A model generated the notes under the pieces. That model had not been told where the DNA came from. It searched no databases and saw only the letters and a program-made list of their open reading frames with translations. A stretch of 57,528 nt of DNA from a virus, in IMG/VR virus record IMGVR_UViG_3300027746_000023, positions 1 through 57,528 of that record; one strand, given 5' to 3'. Positions 16,436 through 41,135 of the stretch are shown here, piece by piece. A program made the translations under genes and the position numbers. Positions within the stretch are counted from its first letter, which is position 1; each line of letters starts with the position of its first letter.

Positions 16436-16854
16436 TTCAGCGCCTCCAGTCGCATTTTGTCCGCAGGCAGGCCGATGCCTGAGCAGTCTCCGAGTGCTTT
16501 GCAGAGATCGCGGTAAAAATTAGAGTTTAAGAATGCAATCGCGGTGCGTTGGTAGCGTTCGCGGTTGTTTTTGAGATTGTTCCGCAGGTAGTCGCGGTCG
16601 TTTTTCGCGTCGAGCACGGCTTGGCGGATCATGGCGCAGAGCAGCCGCCGGGTATACATGAGTTCGTTGTCTACTTGCTCGTCAGGTGAAATTTGTGGCA
16701 AATCGGGCATGCATATCTTCGCAGACTCTTCTTGCGGTTGCGGCGGGCGAGCCGCACTTCGGCGAGCTTGAGCGCGACCGTGCGCTCGCTGGGGTATGCC
16801 TTCTTTGATAGGCACATGTCCCATATTGTTTCTGGTGCGTATTCTCTCACTCAT
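16432..16854 (-). CDS. Hypothetical early protein, 140 aa
   Basis: The N-terminal 60 residues are Arg/Pro/Gln-rich and likely disordered. The C-terminal part is helical (ELMYTRRLLCAMIRQAVLDAKNDRDYLRNN) with aromatic residues (FLNSNFYRDLC). ATGA overlaps at both ends. No function assigned. Confidence 0.6.
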   Translation of the reverse strand: MSERIRTRNNMGHVPIKEGIPQRAHGRAQARRSAARPPQPQEESAKICMPDLPQISPDEQVDNELMYTRRLLCAMIRQAVLDAKNDRDYLRNNLKNNRERYQRTAIAFLNSNFYRDLCKALGDCSGIGLPADKMRLEALK

Positions 16855-17042
16855 TTCGTTTTCTTCCCATGGTGGGTCTCGATGTATTTGCGGACGCGCT
16901 CCATATCAGCCTCCGCCTGTTGACGTTCCTCCAGCGCGTAAGTGTGCTGGTAGGCAGGCAACGGCACGCCGCGCTCAAGCCTCGGGCCGATAGGGCAGGC
17001 GTTGGCGCAGATTGCTAGGCGGAGGGTGATTTCAGGGAGCAT
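16851..17042 (-). CDS. Small early protein downstream of the repeat array, 63 aa
   Basis: I start at ATG 17042. The open frame continues upstream through the GCCNN repeat array, but that extension only encodes low-complexity Ala/Arg/Gly sequence whose frame follows from the repeat. The protein has a CANACPIGP motif and a helical, charged C-terminus. The unusual array lies directly in its leader. Confidence 0.6.
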   Translation of the reverse strand: MLPEITLRLAICANACPIGPRLERGVPLPAYQHTYALEERQQAEADMERVRKYIETHHGKKTK

Positions 17043-17083: not shown

Positions 17084-17403
17084 GGTAAACTGCGGCACCC
17101 CGTAAGATGCCGTGTGTTTGCCATGCCCCGCCAAGCCGCGCCCCGCCTAGCCACGCCCCGCCGGGCCTGGCCGCGCCGCGCCGCGCCAAGGCAAACTTCT
17201 GCACCTCCAAAGAGATGCAGTGTGTTTGCCAAGCCTCGCCGCGCCATGCCTTGCCCCGCCGCGCCTTGCCATGCCTCGCCAAGCCGTGTCGAGCAAACTT
17301 CTGCACCTCCGAAGAGATGCAGTGTGTTTGCCATGCCGCGCCGTGCCTTGCCACGCCTCGCCTTGCCATGCCTCGCCGCGCCCCGCCGCGCCTCGCCGCG
17401 CCA
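17084..17403 (-). repeat. GCCNN pentanucleotide array with three covarying hairpins
   Basis: On the plus strand the block reads hairpin (17084-17122), about 14 GCCNN units, hairpin (17190-17230), about 12 units, hairpin (17293-17331), about 15 units. Each unit keeps GCC and varies the last two bases freely. The hairpin stems pair GGCAAAC with GTTTGCC and CTGCA with TGCAG; in the first copy the inner stem is CGGCA/TGCCG and the outer is GGTAAAC/GTTTGCC, so base pairing is kept by compensatory change. The 5-base period rules out a conserved reading frame. It lies between 17411-17971 and the 17042 start. Confidence 0.85.
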
Positions 17404-17410
17404 TGAAAAA

Positions 17411-17971
17411 TTATTGCCATTTAACCGTGTAGCGGCCAAAAATTGGGCGAAAGGTTCCAAGCCCCAAGATTCCACCTTGATCCAGCATGGTTTGGAGGCA
17501 TGCCGCTGTGAGTAAGGTGTTTTCTTGGTGTGTAAGTTGCAGTTTGATTTGCCACCCAGGCGGAAGCATTGGCCTTTCTTTTGGGTTAGGCACTCCGTCC
17601 TTAACTCTTGCGACATGCTGCATGACTTCGATTCGAGGGTCTTGCAAAGTGTAAGGTTTTCCTTCTGCGTCAAGTATTTGAGCGTTAAGTGTATCGTCTC
17701 CAATTGCCTCGATTGAGACGAATGACATGACTCCGAGAGCAACATCACGCGCCTGCTTTCCGTAAAAACGCTTGGCCACCGATGGCGTGTTTTGTGCTGC
17801 CAGTAGTGAATAAATGTTGAGGACGGGTATTACCAAATGGCCCGACGGTGTGGTGTAGAATTTTTCCATCACCGGCAGTTTGGTTTTGTTGTCTCCCGCG
17901 TAGCGGTCGAACATGATGGGCCGGATGCCGCGAAGCGTGGCCGTAATTGTAGTTGTTTTGATTTCCTTCAT
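17411..17971 (-). CDS. Hypothetical protein with Gly-rich C-terminal loop, 186 aa
   Basis: Begins with a beta strand (KTTTITATLRGIRPIMFDRYAG) and ends GGILGLGTFRPIFGRYTVKWQ. The initial strand plus a glycine-rich terminal loop recalls RAMP (Cas7-like) folds, but sequence alone is not enough to claim it. It lies between a GIY-YIG frame and the repeat array in a recombination/replication operon, so an RNA- or ssDNA-binding role is plausible. No homologue occurs in phage B. Confidence 0.65.
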   Translation of the reverse strand: MKEIKTTTITATLRGIRPIMFDRYAGDNKTKLPVMEKFYTTPSGHLVIPVLNIYSLLAAQNTPSVAKRFYGKQARDVALGVMSFVSIEAIGDDTLNAQILDAEGKPYTLQDPRIEVMQHVARVKDGVPNPKERPMLPPGWQIKLQLTHQENTLLTAACLQTMLDQGGILGLGTFRPIFGRYTVKWQ

Positions 17972-18239
17972 ATTTTTTTATCGTTTCTAGTGCCTCACTG
18001 CGTGAGAGTTTGAACCACTCGCCATTACCGCTCGGTTTCACGAGCCGCAGGTGGGCAAGAGCGAGGTGGATTTTTTTTTCCACAATGGCCTTTTCTCCTG
18101 GCTGGGCTTGCACCCATCCAAGGATTTCAAGCGCCCGAGGTGACCAAACATGAGCTGCCCACAGCCTGCGCCGTAAGTCGTTCTCAGTGCAGCCGATCTT
18201 GCACTCGTTGCCATTGTGAAAAAAATAAACCCGGTCCAT
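17745..18239 (-). CDS. GIY-YIG-like nuclease domain protein, frame overlaps next gene
   Basis: The first 85 residues fit a GIY-YIG/T5orf172 domain: VYFFHNGNECKIGCTENDLRRRL and a helical EKKIHLALAHLR. After that the frame runs 227 nt into the next gene. At the junction a run of seven A's precedes ATATGA; one extra A would end the protein at a TGA overlapping the next ATG, as most genes here do. So the natural end is probably about 17970, reached by a frameshift, or there is an indel in this copy. Confidence 0.6.
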   Translation of the reverse strand: MDRVYFFHNGNECKIGCTENDLRRRLWAAHVWSPRALEILGWVQAQPGEKAIVEKKIHLALAHLRLVKPSGNGEWFKLSRSEALETIKKYEGNQNNYNYGHASRHPAHHVRPLRGRQQNQTAGDGKILHHTVGPFGNTRPQHLFTTGSTKHAIGGQAFLRKAGA

Positions 18240-24043: not shown

Positions 24044-24322
24044 TTATTGTCCTTTTGGCCGAAAAAATAATAACTGTCTTACCTGAGTTTTGCGGACAAC
24101 CTTGGCGCTTTTGCGCTCAAACCTTCCAGCTTGAACTTCAGATTCGAGCTTTCGCTGCATGTATTGGCGGTCGCGTCCGCAGGACTCGGCAAGTTCGTAG
24201 ACATGCCGCCAGCCTTGGCGCTTCAGGTCTTCAATGTCTTCGACTTTGGAGTCTTCAAATACCTTCGCCCAGGCGTCGGTTATATTGGCAGAAGCCACGG
24301 TTGATGTTTTTGTTTTTCGCAT
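24044..24322 (-). CDS. Small helical protein at phage A end, 92 aa
   Basis: Includes WRHVYELAESCGRDRQYMQRKLESEVQAG, a helix-turn-helix-like stretch, and a basic end (KSAKVVRKTQVRQLL). It is the last gene before attP and overlaps the phosphoesterase by 43 nt. A possible regulator or lysogenic-conversion gene. Start choice is uncertain. Confidence 0.5.
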   Translation of the reverse strand: MRKTKTSTVASANITDAWAKVFEDSKVEDIEDLKRQGWRHVYELAESCGRDRQYMQRKLESEVQAGRFERKSAKVVRKTQVRQLLFFRPKGQ

Positions 24323-25014
24323 AAGTTTACGCTGGTTGAGTTTTCGGTGTAATACCCCCACGCGAAGCCGGCCGAGTGAGCCAATGAGGCGCGTCTGCTG
24401 GAGCTATATTCCATGTCGAGATTGCAGATGGCTCCGAGGCAGTAGCCTGTAGGCGAATCGATACGGCGGCCGCGTTCGATGCCTACGCGGTGAAGGTGCG
24501 CCATCAGAACCTTGCCGTATGTCTCCGCATGGTCACGGATGGCAGAAACATTGCAGCTATAACCATGAACCATGGCGAGGTCTCCAAGGCGGTGGACGCC
24601 CTTGCTGTTGTGGTATGGGTATATTTTTGCTTTTAGCTTTTTGGCGCAGTCACCGAGTTCGTTCAGCACGGTCTGAGCGGCGTGCGCGTGAACGGCGTTT
24701 GGCGAATCCGACATGAGGCTCAGTCTGGCTTCGTGGTTGCCGAGCATGATCACATTTGGTGCAAATTCGTAGAGGAATGAAATGCCTTCGCTGACATCCT
24801 GGGCGATGTTCCGCGCGCGGTCCTTGCTGTCTACGTTGGAGGACACGCCGCCGCGCATGGCGGCAAGGTCAATGAAGTCACCGAGATGCGCTTTGAAGTC
24901 CGGCTTAAATTTCTTGGCAAAATCCAGAACGGCCTTGCGGCTTTCGGGGCAGATGAGTTCGCCGTGCGAGCAACCGACTGCCATCCATCGCTTCCATTTT
25001 TTTACAGGTGTCAT
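24280..25014 (-). CDS. Calcineurin-like metallophosphoesterase, 244 aa
   Basis: HLGDFIDL and MLGNHEAR match metallophosphatase motifs II and III, with VHGYS and AHLHRVG as later His motifs. Motif I, normally D-x-H, reads CSH (VGCSHGEL), so one metal ligand is changed and activity may differ. It lies beyond the lysis genes next to attP, a common place for accessory genes. In the circular model it belongs only to phage A. Confidence 0.8.
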   Translation of the reverse strand: MTPVKKWKRWMAVGCSHGELICPESRKAVLDFAKKFKPDFKAHLGDFIDLAAMRGGVSSNVDSKDRARNIAQDVSEGISFLYEFAPNVIMLGNHEARLSLMSDSPNAVHAHAAQTVLNELGDCAKKLKAKIYPYHNSKGVHRLGDLAMVHGYSCNVSAIRDHAETYGKVLMAHLHRVGIERGRRIDSPTGYCLGAICNLDMEYSSSRRASLAHSAGFAWGYYTENSTSVNLCEKQKHQPWLLPI

Positions 25015-25021
25015 GGTAGGT

Positions 25022-25279
25022 TTATGGGAGGTCAGGGATTTCGTTATCTTTTCTGAGTTCCCAAATGTAGGAACGGACTTTTTCGAGCGTGTGCTCGCAC
25101 CCAGAATGCGTGTCACCTGCTTCGCCACGCCATTGCCGGAATTTGCCGCCTCCATGTTTAAGGAACGAGCGGATTTCGTTAAGCAGGTCGTCCAGTATTA
25201 AAATTGTATCCATGCCCTTCACCGCGCATATGTGCTCGGTGCGTTCTTCGGGAAGGGTGAATTCGAGAGTGGCCTTCAT
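25022..25279 (-). CDS. Small conserved siphophage protein, 85 aa
   Basis: MKATLEFTLPEER ... DTILILDDLLNEIRSFLKHG ... LEKVRSYIWELRKDNEI is a pattern that I recognise from many phage early or late hypothetical proteins. An N-terminal strand is followed by two helices. Coupled to the preceding gene by ATGA. Function unknown. Confidence 0.7.
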   Translation of the reverse strand: MKATLEFTLPEERTEHICAVKGMDTILILDDLLNEIRSFLKHGGGKFRQWRGEAGDTHSGCEHTLEKVRSYIWELRKDNEIPDLP

Positions 25280-25554: not shown

Positions 25555-26031
25555 CTAGGCGAGGATGTCTACTTTTTCGGCCACGCGCCGGCGTAGGCTG
25601 GCGAGCATTTCGGACTCGGTCATGCCGGTGGCCCATGGCGGGCGGAATTGGTAATGGGGTTTATCGACGATCTTTTTCCAGCGGCCGCCCCACTCGAGGC
25701 CGAGGCTTTCGCCAAGGGGGCCGAGTTCGTCGTAGAGCGGGTGGTCTTCGAGGTAGGCTTTGCCTTTGAAGACGCCGATGTCGACGGATAGACCGAAATT
25801 ATGATTTGAGTGGCCGGCACGGGCGTGGGTGACGATGCGGCCTGGCGTGCTCCTGCCTTGCGCGTAGATGGCGTCTTGCTCCGCGTAGGAACGGAGCGCT
25901 GAGATGATGCGCACATCGAGGCCGCGCGGCTGGGCGAGGTTCTTTGCCGCGCTGATGAAAGTAGCGACGCGCTTCTGGATGTCGGGATGGAGCGTGGCGA
26001 GGTTGCGCTCGCTGCGGTCATCGAGGGTCAT
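25555..26031 (-). CDS. Endolysin, M15-family L-Ala-D-Glu/VanY-type peptidase, 158 aa
   Basis: Zinc-site motif HSNHNFGLSVD gives ligands His77 and Asp84; HYQF supplies His126. This is the core of M15 endopeptidases such as CwlK and PLY500. ATG at 26031 overlaps the holin stop. A second, slightly diverged copy begins phage B at the right edge. It cleaves peptidoglycan peptides for release. Confidence 0.85.
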   Translation of the reverse strand: MTLDDRSERNLATLHPDIQKRVATFISAAKNLAQPRGLDVRIISALRSYAEQDAIYAQGRSTPGRIVTHARAGHSNHNFGLSVDIGVFKGKAYLEDHPLYDELGPLGESLGLEWGGRWKKIVDKPHYQFRPPWATGMTESEMLASLRRRVAEKVDILA

Positions 26032-38388: not shown

Positions 38389-38999
38389 TTATTCGTCGTC
38401 CTCGTCAATAGTTGGCAGCGAAGTCAAAAGCGAGGCGAGGTCGTGCTCGGCCGGGGCGGAGGGCTTGACGGTCCAGACGCCATGCGCGCGCAGGGCGGCG
38501 TGTTGGTAGGCCAGCGCGCGGTGCAGTGGAAGTTCCCATAGTATGTAGTGTTCGGGCCATGCGGTTTCTCGGGCCAGGGTGAAGACCATCGAGGCGGCCT
38601 GCCCTGGCTCAATTAGTTTGGGGGGATGTTTTCCTCTTTCTCTCCGGGCTTGGATTCGACGCTGAAGGATGCTGCGCTTACTTGCTCCCCGATTCGGTTC
38701 AGCTCGGCGCTGAGTTCACCCACTCGGGAGAGGTCGATCGAGAACATAAAAGCGTCGATGGCTTCATCCGATTTGCCTGTGTGCACGGCGCGCAGGACGT
38801 CGGCAATCGGTGCGCTTTGTAGCCAAGCGACGGCGGCGAGGTTGCGCATCTGGTCGGCCTCGGAGAGCGTCCCATCGATGGTAATCCCAAGGCGCTGCAT
38901 GAGGTGGAATGAGCCAATACTGAATGGCCGCATTTTTAGCCCGGCGACCTCAAGCATGTCGGGGCTGAGAAACATATAGTCGGATTTTGGGTCGATCAT
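38389..38999 (-). CDS. Predicted frameshifted tail chaperone gpG-T fusion
   Basis: The zero-frame gene ends EENIPPN-stop. A C CCC CCA heptamer at 38619-38625 (minus strand) is an ideal -1 slip site two codons before that stop. The -1 frame then reads KLIEPGQAAS into the downstream 66-residue frame at 38389-38589. Lambda and many siphophages make such G/GT products at a low ratio before the tape measure. The prediction rests on the slip site, frame and location. Confidence 0.7.
38613..38999 (-). CDS. Tail assembly chaperone (gpG-like), 128 aa
   Basis: Helical protein starting MIDPKSDYMFLSPDML, with PIADVLRAVHTGKSDEAIDAFMF, ending in a Glu-rich tail and the slippery site. It binds the tape measure during tail assembly, by analogy with gpG. 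ATGA-coupled to 38996-39496. Phage A's copy begins at base 343. Confidence 0.65.
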   Translation of the reverse strand: MIDPKSDYMFLSPDMLEVAGLKMRPFSIGSFHLMQRLGITIDGTLSEADQMRNLAAVAWLQSAPIADVLRAVHTGKSDEAIDAFMFSIDLSRVGELSAELNRIGEQVSAASFSVESKPGEKEENIPPN

Positions 39000-39496
39000 T
39001 TGAGGTAGGAGAGGAGTTTTTCTTTTTTGTCCTGGGGAAGCTCGGCGGGGATCGTGACCATGCGGTTGCCGCGTCGGAGCACGGCAGCGGGAGTCATGGC
39101 GCGAATCTTGTCACGCAGCTCGGAGAGGTGGCGGGCGCTCCACCGCATAAACGCAATCGGGTGGTGTGAGTGCTCGAGGCACCACTGCTCGCTCTCGTAG
39201 CGGCTGCGGAATTCTTCGAAGTCAATTTCCTCTCGGCCTTCTGCTGTCACAAAAAGCCCTTTGCTGGAGCCGTCGATAAACCACTCAACTTTGCGAAGCG
39301 GTCCCTTCTCCGTCTGTTCAACGGTGTCGCGGAATCCACCGGAGTCTACGAGCCGGAATCCGCTGGTGAGCGCGTCGGCAATGAGCCGGGTATTTGCCGC
39401 GTTGAGCGGGTTGTTGCCGTAGCGCACGCGGCCATCGGCGTTTTTTTCACCGAGGCAAAACTCGGTGATGTAGTGGTAGCTGTCTCCTGATTTCAT
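38996..39496 (-). CDS. Conserved tail-module protein, 166 aa (phage B)
   Basis: Homologue of 340-840. Differences from phage A are mostly conservative (for example LVDSGG for LIQTGG). EHSHHPIAFMRWSARHLSELRDKIR is unchanged. It lies in the same position between tube-like proteins and chaperone. Unknown function. Confidence 0.75.
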   Translation of the reverse strand: MKSGDSYHYITEFCLGEKNADGRVRYGNNPLNAANTRLIADALTSGFRLVDSGGFRDTVEQTEKGPLRKVEWFIDGSSKGLFVTAEGREEIDFEEFRSRYESEQWCLEHSHHPIAFMRWSARHLSELRDKIRAMTPAAVLRRGNRMVTIPAELPQDKKEKLLSYLK

Positions 39497-39510
39497 AATG
39501 TGATCGGTAG

Positions 39511-39527
39511 GCAGACGGCCGGTCTGC
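39511..39527 (-). terminator. Conserved hairpin after tail-tube gene (phage B)
   Basis: GCAGAC/GTCTGC stem with a GGCCG loop, the same as 855-871 in phage A apart from one loop base. Confidence 0.4.
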
Positions 39528-39547
39528 GAGCGGGCGCTTGTGCGCGG

Positions 39548-39868
39548 TTAGGTAGCTGACGGGAAGGCTTCTCCCGAGTATTCCCAAGACTCCCAGTCGT
39601 CATTGTTCGTCTGGTTTTTGATTGAGTTGATGATGACTTTGCCCGTGACGCCGGAGGGTTTGCCAGTGCCTGCGGCATTTATTGATACAGGGCAGACCGC
39701 CCCCTTGCCGGACACGGTGAAAGAAAACTTGGGGTCGAATACGGCGGCTTTTGAGTATTTCCCTGCCTTGTCCACTAGGATCGAAACCTCGCCTTGTGAA
39801 GTGACTTCCACGCTTTGCGCAGTGGTGTGTGTAACTAAATTTATTCCGATTGCGGTTGGTGCGGCCAT
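39548..39868 (-). CDS. Small beta-rich tail tube-like protein, 106 aa (phage B)
   Basis: Homologue of 892-1212. Variable N-terminal third (AIGINLVTHTTAQ) but conserved VEVTSQGEV and KVIINSIKNQTNNDDWESWEYSGE. Likely tail tube or related beta-sandwich protein by position. Confidence 0.6.
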   Translation of the reverse strand: MAAPTAIGINLVTHTTAQSVEVTSQGEVSILVDKAGKYSKAAVFDPKFSFTVSGKGAVCPVSINAAGTGKPSGVTGKVIINSIKNQTNNDDWESWEYSGEAFPSAT

Positions 39869-39871
39869 AGG

Positions 39872-40180
39872 TCAGTTCGAGGCAAATTGTTGATAGGTGA
39901 CTTCGTAGTCAGGGAAATCCTCGGCGGATTCGGAGGTTTTTGCCGAGGTGATGACAGCTGTGCCGGTCACATTTGCATTAGCCGTAACGGCCGGAGCGTA
40001 GCTTCCCTTGCCCTTGATCACGATTTCTGTGGTGGTCACGCCTTTCAGCACGGCGAGTTTTGTCACGCCACTCGTATCACGCACGGTTGCAATCTCGGCA
40101 GATTCGGTTTTCGTCGTTTCTTGAACGAAACCCGAAGCCGGGTCTGTGACGCCAAAAAGATCAATCGTTGCAAAGGCCAT
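39872..40180 (-). CDS. Small beta-rich tail protein, 102 aa (phage B)
   Basis: Homologue of 1215-1523 starting MAFATIDLFGVTDPASG. It shares the GKG-centred beta pattern with 39548-39868, which suggests a duplication predating the split of the two phages. Confidence 0.6.
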   Translation of the reverse strand: MAFATIDLFGVTDPASGFVQETTKTESAEIATVRDTSGVTKLAVLKGVTTTEIVIKGKGSYAPAVTANANVTGTAVITSAKTSESAEDFPDYEVTYQQFASN

Positions 40181-40182
40181 GG

Positions 40183-40338
40183 TTATTCGGTGGTGGTGGG
40201 TTCGGCTGGGACGACCAGCGTAAAATAAATTTCCTTCTTCGTGCCGCCTGCGACTGGCACAGAGCCGATGCTTGCAAAGGCTCCGGCAGCGTTTGCCTCT
40301 TCGACAAGGGCGGTGAGTTTTTCAAGAAGCTCGCTCAT
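40183..40338 (-). CDS. Small tail-region protein, 51 aa (phage B)
   Basis: Counterpart of 1525-1683, with one Glu fewer at the C-terminus and ASIGSVPVAGG in the middle. TTTGACA precedes the ATG by 15 nt, as in phage A. Confidence 0.65.
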   Translation of the reverse strand: MSELLEKLTALVEEANAAGAFASIGSVPVAGGTKKEIYFTLVVPAEPTTTE

Positions 40339-40360
40339 TTGCCTTGTTTCAGTTGTCAAA
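40336..40360 (-). promoter_or_regulatory. Start-associated sequence, TTTGACA-N15-ATG
   Basis: Same spacing and near-identical spacer as 1681-1705 in phage A. Confidence 0.6.
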
Positions 40361-40754
40361 TTTCTCGGACACCGATCACAATCTCGGCCGTCGTGTGCAG
40401 GCGGTCATTTTCCCTCGCCTCCGACCAACTTGTGAGATGCCGCCCGCTGAACGCGAGCGCTTGTGGAAAAAATGCCGAGACGCCCGAGAGGTTCGCACCA
40501 GCGCGAAGCGAGGCAGCAAGCGAGCGGTGCATTTCCAGCGAATCCTCAATGACGGCAGGCGTTGAAAGCGTGATCTGCACGGTGGCTCTGTAAAGGCCAG
40601 CAACAGTGCTGTTCGCGTTATCACACGAGACGACAACAACCGGCATGTCTCCGGGGATTTCTTTATCATCGGTGGCTGTGTGAATGGCTACGCCCTCCAA
40701 CTCGGGAAGGTCGTGCAGGTAATTTGCAACCGCATTTTGGATTTCAAGAGTCAT
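40356..40754 (-). CDS. Tail completion/minor tail protein, 132 aa (phage B)
   Basis: Homologue of 1701-2099 with the same AEIVIGVREI end. Diverged in the surface-like middle (TATDDKEIPGDMPVVVVSCDNANS). Positional assignment to tail completion. ATGA-coupled to the head-tail joiner. Confidence 0.6.
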   Translation of the reverse strand: MTLEIQNAVANYLHDLPELEGVAIHTATDDKEIPGDMPVVVVSCDNANSTVAGLYRATVQITLSTPAVIEDSLEMHRSLAASLRAGANLSGVSAFFPQALAFSGRHLTSWSEARENDRLHTTAEIVIGVREI

Positions 40755-41074
40755 AGTGAGGAGCCTGGAACGATGGTGGTGACGAACTCAAACGGCGTGC
40801 CGGTCTGCTCGCGCACGGTGGCAATGGTGTAGGTCTTGCCATCGATCAAAAGCTGCTCGCCACGGCGGGGAGCGGATTGCACGGACGAGGCCAGAAAGCG
40901 TGCGGTGAATTCGCCGCCTTGGCGCAGGCCGCCGGTCTCGAGATCAAGACCGATGGCGATGGCGGACAGGCCGACGCGGATGCTCTGCCCGCGAAAGGTA
41001 GCAGGCTTGCCGAGGAGCGTATTGCGCGCCGTGGCAGCTAGGTTTTCGAGGTGGTCTTTTTGCGCAGGCGACAT
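40751..41074 (-). CDS. Head-tail joining protein, 107 aa (phage B)
   Basis: Homologue of 2096-2419, differing at few positions (QSIRVGLSA, VQSAPRRGEQLLIDGKTYTIATV). Follows the capsid gene and a strong hairpin. ATG 13 nt after TTTGACA. Confidence 0.55.
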   Translation of the reverse strand: MSPAQKDHLENLAATARNTLLGKPATFRGQSIRVGLSAIAIGLDLETGGLRQGGEFTARFLASSVQSAPRRGEQLLIDGKTYTIATVREQTGTPFEFVTTIVPGSSL

Positions 41075-41094
41075 GCCTGTGCAGGGGTGTCAAA
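41072..41094 (-). promoter_or_regulatory. Start-associated sequence, TTTGACA-N13-ATG
   Basis: Spacer CCCCTGCACAGGC holds a small CCTG/CAGG palindrome. The motif lies directly after the capsid terminator. Confidence 0.65.
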
Positions 41095-41099
41095 AGCAG

Positions 41100-41135
41100 A
41101 ACGCCCGACCGGAAAAGGCTAACCGGTCGGGCGTT
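41100..41135 (-). terminator. Strong hairpin after capsid gene (phage B)
   Basis: Perfect 13-bp stem AACGCCCGACCGG/CCGGTCGGGCGTT with a 10-nt loop, 20 bases after the capsid stop. CTGCTTTTGACA follows on the minus strand. Probably a partial terminator or RNA stabiliser that sets the capsid-to-connector ratio. Confidence 0.65.

What the first reader, a model, noticed from the sequence alone, without database searches (positions are those of the whole stretch)
17084..17403. GCCNN pentamer array with three covarying hairpins
About 41 consecutive units keep GCC and vary the next two bases almost freely, in three runs of about 14, 12 and 15. Each run is bounded by a hairpin whose stems are kept by compensatory change (CTGCA/TGCAG versus CGGCA/TGCCG). 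The period of 5 excludes coding selection. This is not a CRISPR, DGR or known phage repeat that I can name. On the operon strand it is a structured leader before the 17042 start.
Basis: seen in the sequence. Interest (0 to 1): 0.85.

Follow-up and report, generated by a model that had tools for sequence, protein, structure and literature searches.

The report
Phage VIPR guide-RNA array beside vipr
The odd GCCNN repeats are three guide RNAs of a recently reported phage weapon called VIPR, in which a small CRISPR-like protein uses the variable letter pairs to find and silence the DNA of rival phages; this is a new member of that system in an uncultured phage that probably infects Verrucomicrobia.

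Summary
In detail: on the minus strand there are 41 exact GGCNN units in three runs (15, 12, 14), each ending in a strongly folding hairpin. The array starts 8 bases after the stop of a 186-aa gene on the same strand. That gene's family profile matches the solved SUSP1 Vipr protein (E = 1e-30), and its predicted fold matches Cas7/Csm3 RAMP proteins. In 87 of 120 other viral contigs found only by the repeat pattern, a homologous gene lies within 1 kb of an array, in 86 of them with the same GGY sense. Everything fits the VIPR system (PMC13142463, preprint 2026): vrRNAs of 9-16 GGY/NN units plus a 3' tail, whose NN pairs specify DNA with one skipped base. So the array is three guide RNAs downstream of vipr, not a leader and not a new repeat class. 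[quoted passage not shown] Possible new detail: the four closest relatives all carry a GIY-YIG nuclease-type gene directly upstream of vipr, with an unusual out-of-frame overlap. Verdict: a new member of a known, very recently described kind.

The parts
17411..17971 (-). vipr gene, 186 aa (RAMP-fold protein with G-loop GGILGLGTFRPIFGRY near the C terminus)
   Evidence: Family profile against PDB: SUSP1 Vipr 36pp_D, E = 9.9e-31 with the 25-sequence profile A2 and 3.5e-7 with the 13-sequence profile A1; AlphaFold2 pLDDT 90.6, pTM 0.85; Foldseek best hits are Cas7 of type VII and Csm3 of type III CRISPR, prob 1.00
17328..17402 (-). vrRNA 1 guide tract, 15 GGCNN units (the last one runs into the tail)
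   Evidence: decoded NNx: [IM]A[DE]AGA[DE][IM][KN][DE]V[KN]TA[IM]
17291..17332 (-). vrRNA 1 tail hairpin: 7-bp outer stem, ACA/AA internal loop, 9-bp stem with UUCG loop
   Evidence: -22.0 kcal/mol, z -5.4
17226..17285 (-). vrRNA 2 guide tract, 12 exact GGCNN units plus two degenerate units upstream (TGCTC, GACAC)
   Evidence: decoded ST[FL][DE][IM][KN]AG[KN][IM]A[DE][FL]
17190..17230 (-). vrRNA 2 tail hairpin
   Evidence: -23.6 kcal/mol, z -5.8
17118..17187 (-). vrRNA 3 guide tract, 14 GGCNN units
   Evidence: decoded [FL]AAA[HQ]PGVYGA[FL]G[IM]
17084..17122 (-). vrRNA 3 tail hairpin (CGGCA/TGCCG variant, weaker outer stem)
   Evidence: -14.3 kcal/mol, z -3.1
17745..18239 (-). GIY-YIG (T5orf172/MUG113) gene, candidate accessory gene; the domain ends at the vipr start codon, but the ORF stays open 227 nt into vipr in another frame
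   Evidence: Pfam PF13455 E 4.6e-9 and PF10544 E 1.1e-7; same position in L035, L094 and L064

Best explanation
The array is three VIPR guide RNAs (vrRNAs) transcribed from the minus strand together with, and just downstream of, a vipr gene in the early region of a phage (between recombination/SSB genes and replication genes). Each vrRNA is a tract of GGC-NN units followed by a folded 3' tail. Copies of the 20-kDa Vipr protein, a RAMP of the Cas7 type, are expected to line up along the GGC triplets and hold the NN pairs out, so that these base-pair with double-stranded DNA in the pattern NNxNNxNN (one skipped base, usually the codon wobble base). The complex then blocks transcription of a gene in a competing phage or other mobile element. 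Shown here: array, tails, linkage to a Vipr-family protein, fold. Inferred from the published system: RNA processing, RNP formation, the skip rule, DNA binding, silencing of competitors. Not shown: the targets.
For: Repeat form and number of units as published (9-16 units of GGY/NN with a 3' structured tail; PMC13142463). Adjacent Vipr homologue by profile, by fold and by G-loop motif. Blind association: of 120 viral contigs fetched only by the repeat pattern, 87 carry a Vipr homologue, all within 1 kb of an array, median distance 30 nt, 86 of 87 with GGY on the vipr strand. The layout vrRNA - vipr - vrRNA(s) recurs in the 12 closest relatives. The same array occurs in a second IMG/VR record. 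Vipr-family proteins in Felix O1-like coliphages and a Pseudomonas prophage also have GGY/NN tracts beside them. Across 349 guides, NN units lean coherently to one coding strand within a guide (z = 3.7 against within-locus shuffles).
Against: No target was found. In IMG/VR there were no matches for 11-unit blocks of each guide; 9-unit blocks of guides 2 and 3 gave nothing and guide 1 gave 5 hits of 20-24/32, chance level; an 8-unit block of guide 3 gave two hits of 20-21/30. Guides 1 and 3 had no match with up to 3 mismatches in 286 Verrucomicrobia genomes. The codon test does not separate codon positions 1-2 from 2-3. The window Vipr alone matches SUSP1 Vipr only weakly (E 0.06). No expression data.
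Confidence: 0.93

Rival explanations
1. A structured leader or cis-regulatory RNA for the gene starting at 17042, perhaps bound by a TRAP-like ring protein that reads a triplet every five bases.
For: The array does precede the 16851-17042 ORF on the same strand; a period-5 triplet array resembles TRAP sites in form (own knowledge).
Against: The linked gene across 87 contigs is vipr, not the downstream gene; arrays also lie upstream of vipr and in many gene contexts. The published RNA of this exact form is a trans-acting guide.
Confidence: 0.03
2. A selfish or slippage-generated tandem repeat without function.
For: Low-complexity look; the copy number of units varies.
Against: The triplet is kept while the next two bases vary, at contig GC from 39 to 76%; strand and distance are tied to vipr in 86 of 87 contigs; the tails are conserved hairpins. 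Slippage would copy NN as well.
Confidence: 0.01
3. A VIPR locus, but with a different decoding rule or a nuclease output in this clade rather than plain silencing.
For: The clade is distant from SUSP1 Vipr (about 20% identity to the other groups in A2) and has a GIY-YIG gene directly upstream. No target was found with the 1-nt rule.
Against: NN units lean coherently to one coding strand, as a step of three bases predicts, although this is not decisive. The paper reports the rule experimentally only for type II.
Confidence: 0.2

Closest known systems
VIPR (Viral Interference Programmable Repeat), SUSP1 / P. fulva prophage systems, PMC13142463; PDB 36pp SUSP1 Vipr
   Same: GGY/NN pentamer tracts of 9-16 units, structured 3' tail, several vrRNAs flanking a ~20-kDa Vipr RAMP gene on the same strand, carried by a phage.
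   Different: Vipr sequence is distant; the tail here is a single long interrupted hairpin (no pseudoknot examined); all three vrRNAs are downstream; a GIY-YIG gene lies directly upstream. Type cannot be assigned because the paper's supplement was not readable.
Class 1 CRISPR Cas7 / Csm3 backbone proteins
   Same: Fold (RRM core, G-loop); Foldseek prob 1.00.
   Different: No CRISPR repeats or spacers, no other cas genes, no adaptation genes; guides are non-contiguous.
TRAP-binding (NAG NN) arrays
   Same: A conserved triplet every five bases in RNA, about a dozen units.
   Different: Different triplet, different protein, no trp genes; resemblance only, from own knowledge.

Membership tests
VIPR | RNA with 9-16 tandem units of conserved GGY and variable NN | tested here: met
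   15, 12 and 14 GGCNN units
VIPR | Conserved structured 3' tail after each tract | tested here: met
   three similar hairpins, z -5.4, -5.8, -3.1
VIPR | Adjacent Vipr protein (RAMP homologue, ~20 kDa) | tested here: met
   hmmsearch to SUSP1 Vipr E 9.9e-31 with A2; Cas7/Csm3 fold
VIPR | G-loop and thumb for RNA binding | tested here: inconclusive
   G-loop GGILGLGTFRPIFGRY conserved; thumb not examined
VIPR | Phage-borne locus | tested here: met
   terminase, portal, integrase, replication genes in the window
VIPR | vap accessory gene | tested here: inconclusive
   GIY-YIG gene directly upstream in the 4 closest relatives; whether it is one of vap1-6 could not be checked
VIPR | Targets in competing mobile elements by the 1-nt skip rule | tested here: inconclusive
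   no target found
VIPR | vrRNA expressed and bound by Vipr | not testable with these tools
   needs RNA sequencing and pull-down
CRISPR-Cas | Identical direct repeats with unique spacers and cas genes | tested here: not met
   no such repeats in the array; the only RAMP gene examined is vipr; PADLOC gives no hit for it

The most novel reading that the evidence does not exclude
A nuclease-armed VIPR carried by a phage. In this clade the GIY-YIG domain gene and vipr form one unit: the GIY-YIG ORF has no stop before vipr and stays open 227-296 nt into it, always in the same relative frame, in all four closest relatives, so a +1 frameshift could make a GIY-YIG-Vipr fusion that cuts rather than only silences rival DNA. 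The preprint's main text ties nuclease-bearing types to host defence, so a phage-borne one would be a departure.
Probability: 0.25. Interest if true: 0.75.

Novelty: new member of a known kind. Interest (0 to 1): 0.55.

Why it matters
It ties an apparently unexplained repeat to a newly described RNA-guided system that may be ancestral to CRISPR. The blind repeat search shows that the system is widespread in uncultured phages and can be found by the RNA pattern alone. The window adds a distant Vipr clade in a phage probably of Verrucomicrobia, with a recurrent GIY-YIG neighbour. If that partner acts with Vipr, this would be a compact programmable DNA-cutting complex used by one phage against another.

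Tried and rejected
Coding repeat: rejected; the frames through the array are open only because the unit rarely makes stops, and the array lies outside vipr. Known RNA family: no Rfam hit in the window. Host dispersed element: pattern absent from 3 Verrucomicrobia genomes. Literature under GCCNN/GGCNN spellings: nothing relevant; found under 'pentanucleotide repeat' + phage; only one paper on VIPR in the library. Target searches: see evidence against. All-against-all search of 352 guides on 1.2 Mb of fetched loci (both strands) with 0-3 skip: nothing above chance for any rule. Window Vipr by tblastn in phage and plasmid collections: none. GIY-YIG gene in 188 Verrucomicrobia genomes: none.

Full report
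Observation. The minus strand of 17084-17402 holds 41 exact GGCNN units in three runs of 15, 12 and 14; nothing similar occurs elsewhere in the window (longest run 3), and dinucleotide shuffles of the region reach at most 6. Each run ends in a hairpin GGCAAAC-ACA-CTGCATCTC-TTCG-GAGGTGCAG-AA-GTTTGC or a close variant. The identical array is present in IMG/VR record 3300009185_000138 (L016), 100% identical over the stretches compared.

What it is. A literature search led to the VIPR preprint: phage-encoded Vipr proteins, ancestral RAMPs, with guide RNAs made of 9-16 GGY/NN units and a structured tail, which recognise DNA through the NN pairs with one skipped base and silence competing phages.

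Tests of membership. The ORF just upstream of the array on the same strand (17411-17971, 186 aa) has no Pfam match but matches phrog_4652 and, weakly, the solved SUSP1 Vipr. Profiles built from homologues beside other arrays match SUSP1 Vipr at 3.5e-7 and 9.9e-31. The AlphaFold2 model (pLDDT 90.6) matches Cas7 of type VII and Csm3 of type III CRISPR complexes with probability 1.00. Among the 120 contigs found only by the repeat, 87 carry a Vipr homologue, always within 1 kb of an array, and in 86 the GGY sense is on the vipr strand. This linkage was not used to find the contigs and is the strongest single piece of evidence. As a control, Vipr-family proteins in a Felixounavirus and in Pseudomonas LESphi2 also have GGY/NN tracts next to them.

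Decoding. With NNx per unit, the three guides read [IM]A[DE]AGA[DE][IM][KN][DE]V[KN]TA[IM]; ST[FL][DE][IM][KN]AG[KN][IM]A[DE][FL]; [FL]AAA[HQ]PGVYGA[FL]G[IM]. They contain no obligatory stop and look like protein segments, but this is only suggestive. Over 349 guides the NN units of one guide lean to the same coding strand more than within-locus shuffles (z 3.7), yet codon positions 2-3 give nearly the same value. No target was found in the window, the fetched loci, IMG/VR or the sampled Verrucomicrobia genomes. The real targets may lie in unsequenced phages or differ by several mismatches.

Context. The locus lies between SSB/recombination genes (DUF669, PD-(D/E)XK nuclease, Sak4) and replication genes (replication initiation protein, DnaB) of an integrase-carrying phage. 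The neighbouring phage's primase relatives are in Verrucomicrobia genomes, and terminase relatives of the VIPR-bearing phage occur in 22 of 188 genomes of that class, so the host is probably there (inference).

Possible new detail. A GIY-YIG (T5orf172/MUG113) gene lies directly upstream of vipr in the window and in L035, L094 and L064, the four closest relatives. In all four the GIY-YIG ORF has no stop before vipr, and the vipr start is in the +1 frame relative to it. Under synonymous shuffling the GIY frame stays open as long in 3.5-12% of trials per gene, so the overlap is suggestive but was noticed after the fact, and L094 and L064 are near-duplicates. The preprint's main text mentions nucleases among accessory proteins of types III-V; whether GIY-YIG is among them could not be checked because its supplement was not available.

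Verdict. A VIPR locus with three vrRNAs; a new member of a known, very recent kind.

Noticed in passing
window 1-57528: The record holds two related tailed phages head to tail on the minus strand: two terminases (37% identity), two portals (54%), two Clp-type head proteases (41%); 1-2475 is 87% identical to 38657-41135, and 25556-26008 is 94% identical to the last 453 bases. Tandem prophages or a joined assembly.
   Followed up: partly
window 17745-18239; L035, L094, L064: GIY-YIG gene upstream of vipr without a stop before the vipr start; ORF open 227-296 nt into vipr in the same relative frame in four loci.
   Followed up: partly
L013, L021, L025, L031, L043, L049, L055, L100, L115 and others: 33 of 120 array-bearing viral contigs have no Vipr detectable with the profile; six of them have a DNA methyltransferase-like gene near the array. 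Could be solitary vrRNAs, more distant Viprs or chance coding repeats.
   Followed up: partly
L081 (6243, +) and L099 (4590, -): Guides of two different phages both decode to a GK[DE]ST-like stretch, which might be a shared target family.
   Followed up: no
L041, L056, L079: A calcineurin-like phosphoesterase-type gene lies next to vipr in three relatives; a weak Metallophos match also exists in the window at 24280-25155, away from vipr.
   Followed up: no
L130 1489-2016: A Verrucomicrobia genome (G130) encodes a Vipr-like protein (GIGDFRPKFGRF) with no GGY/NN array of five or more units in the fetched stretch.
   Followed up: no
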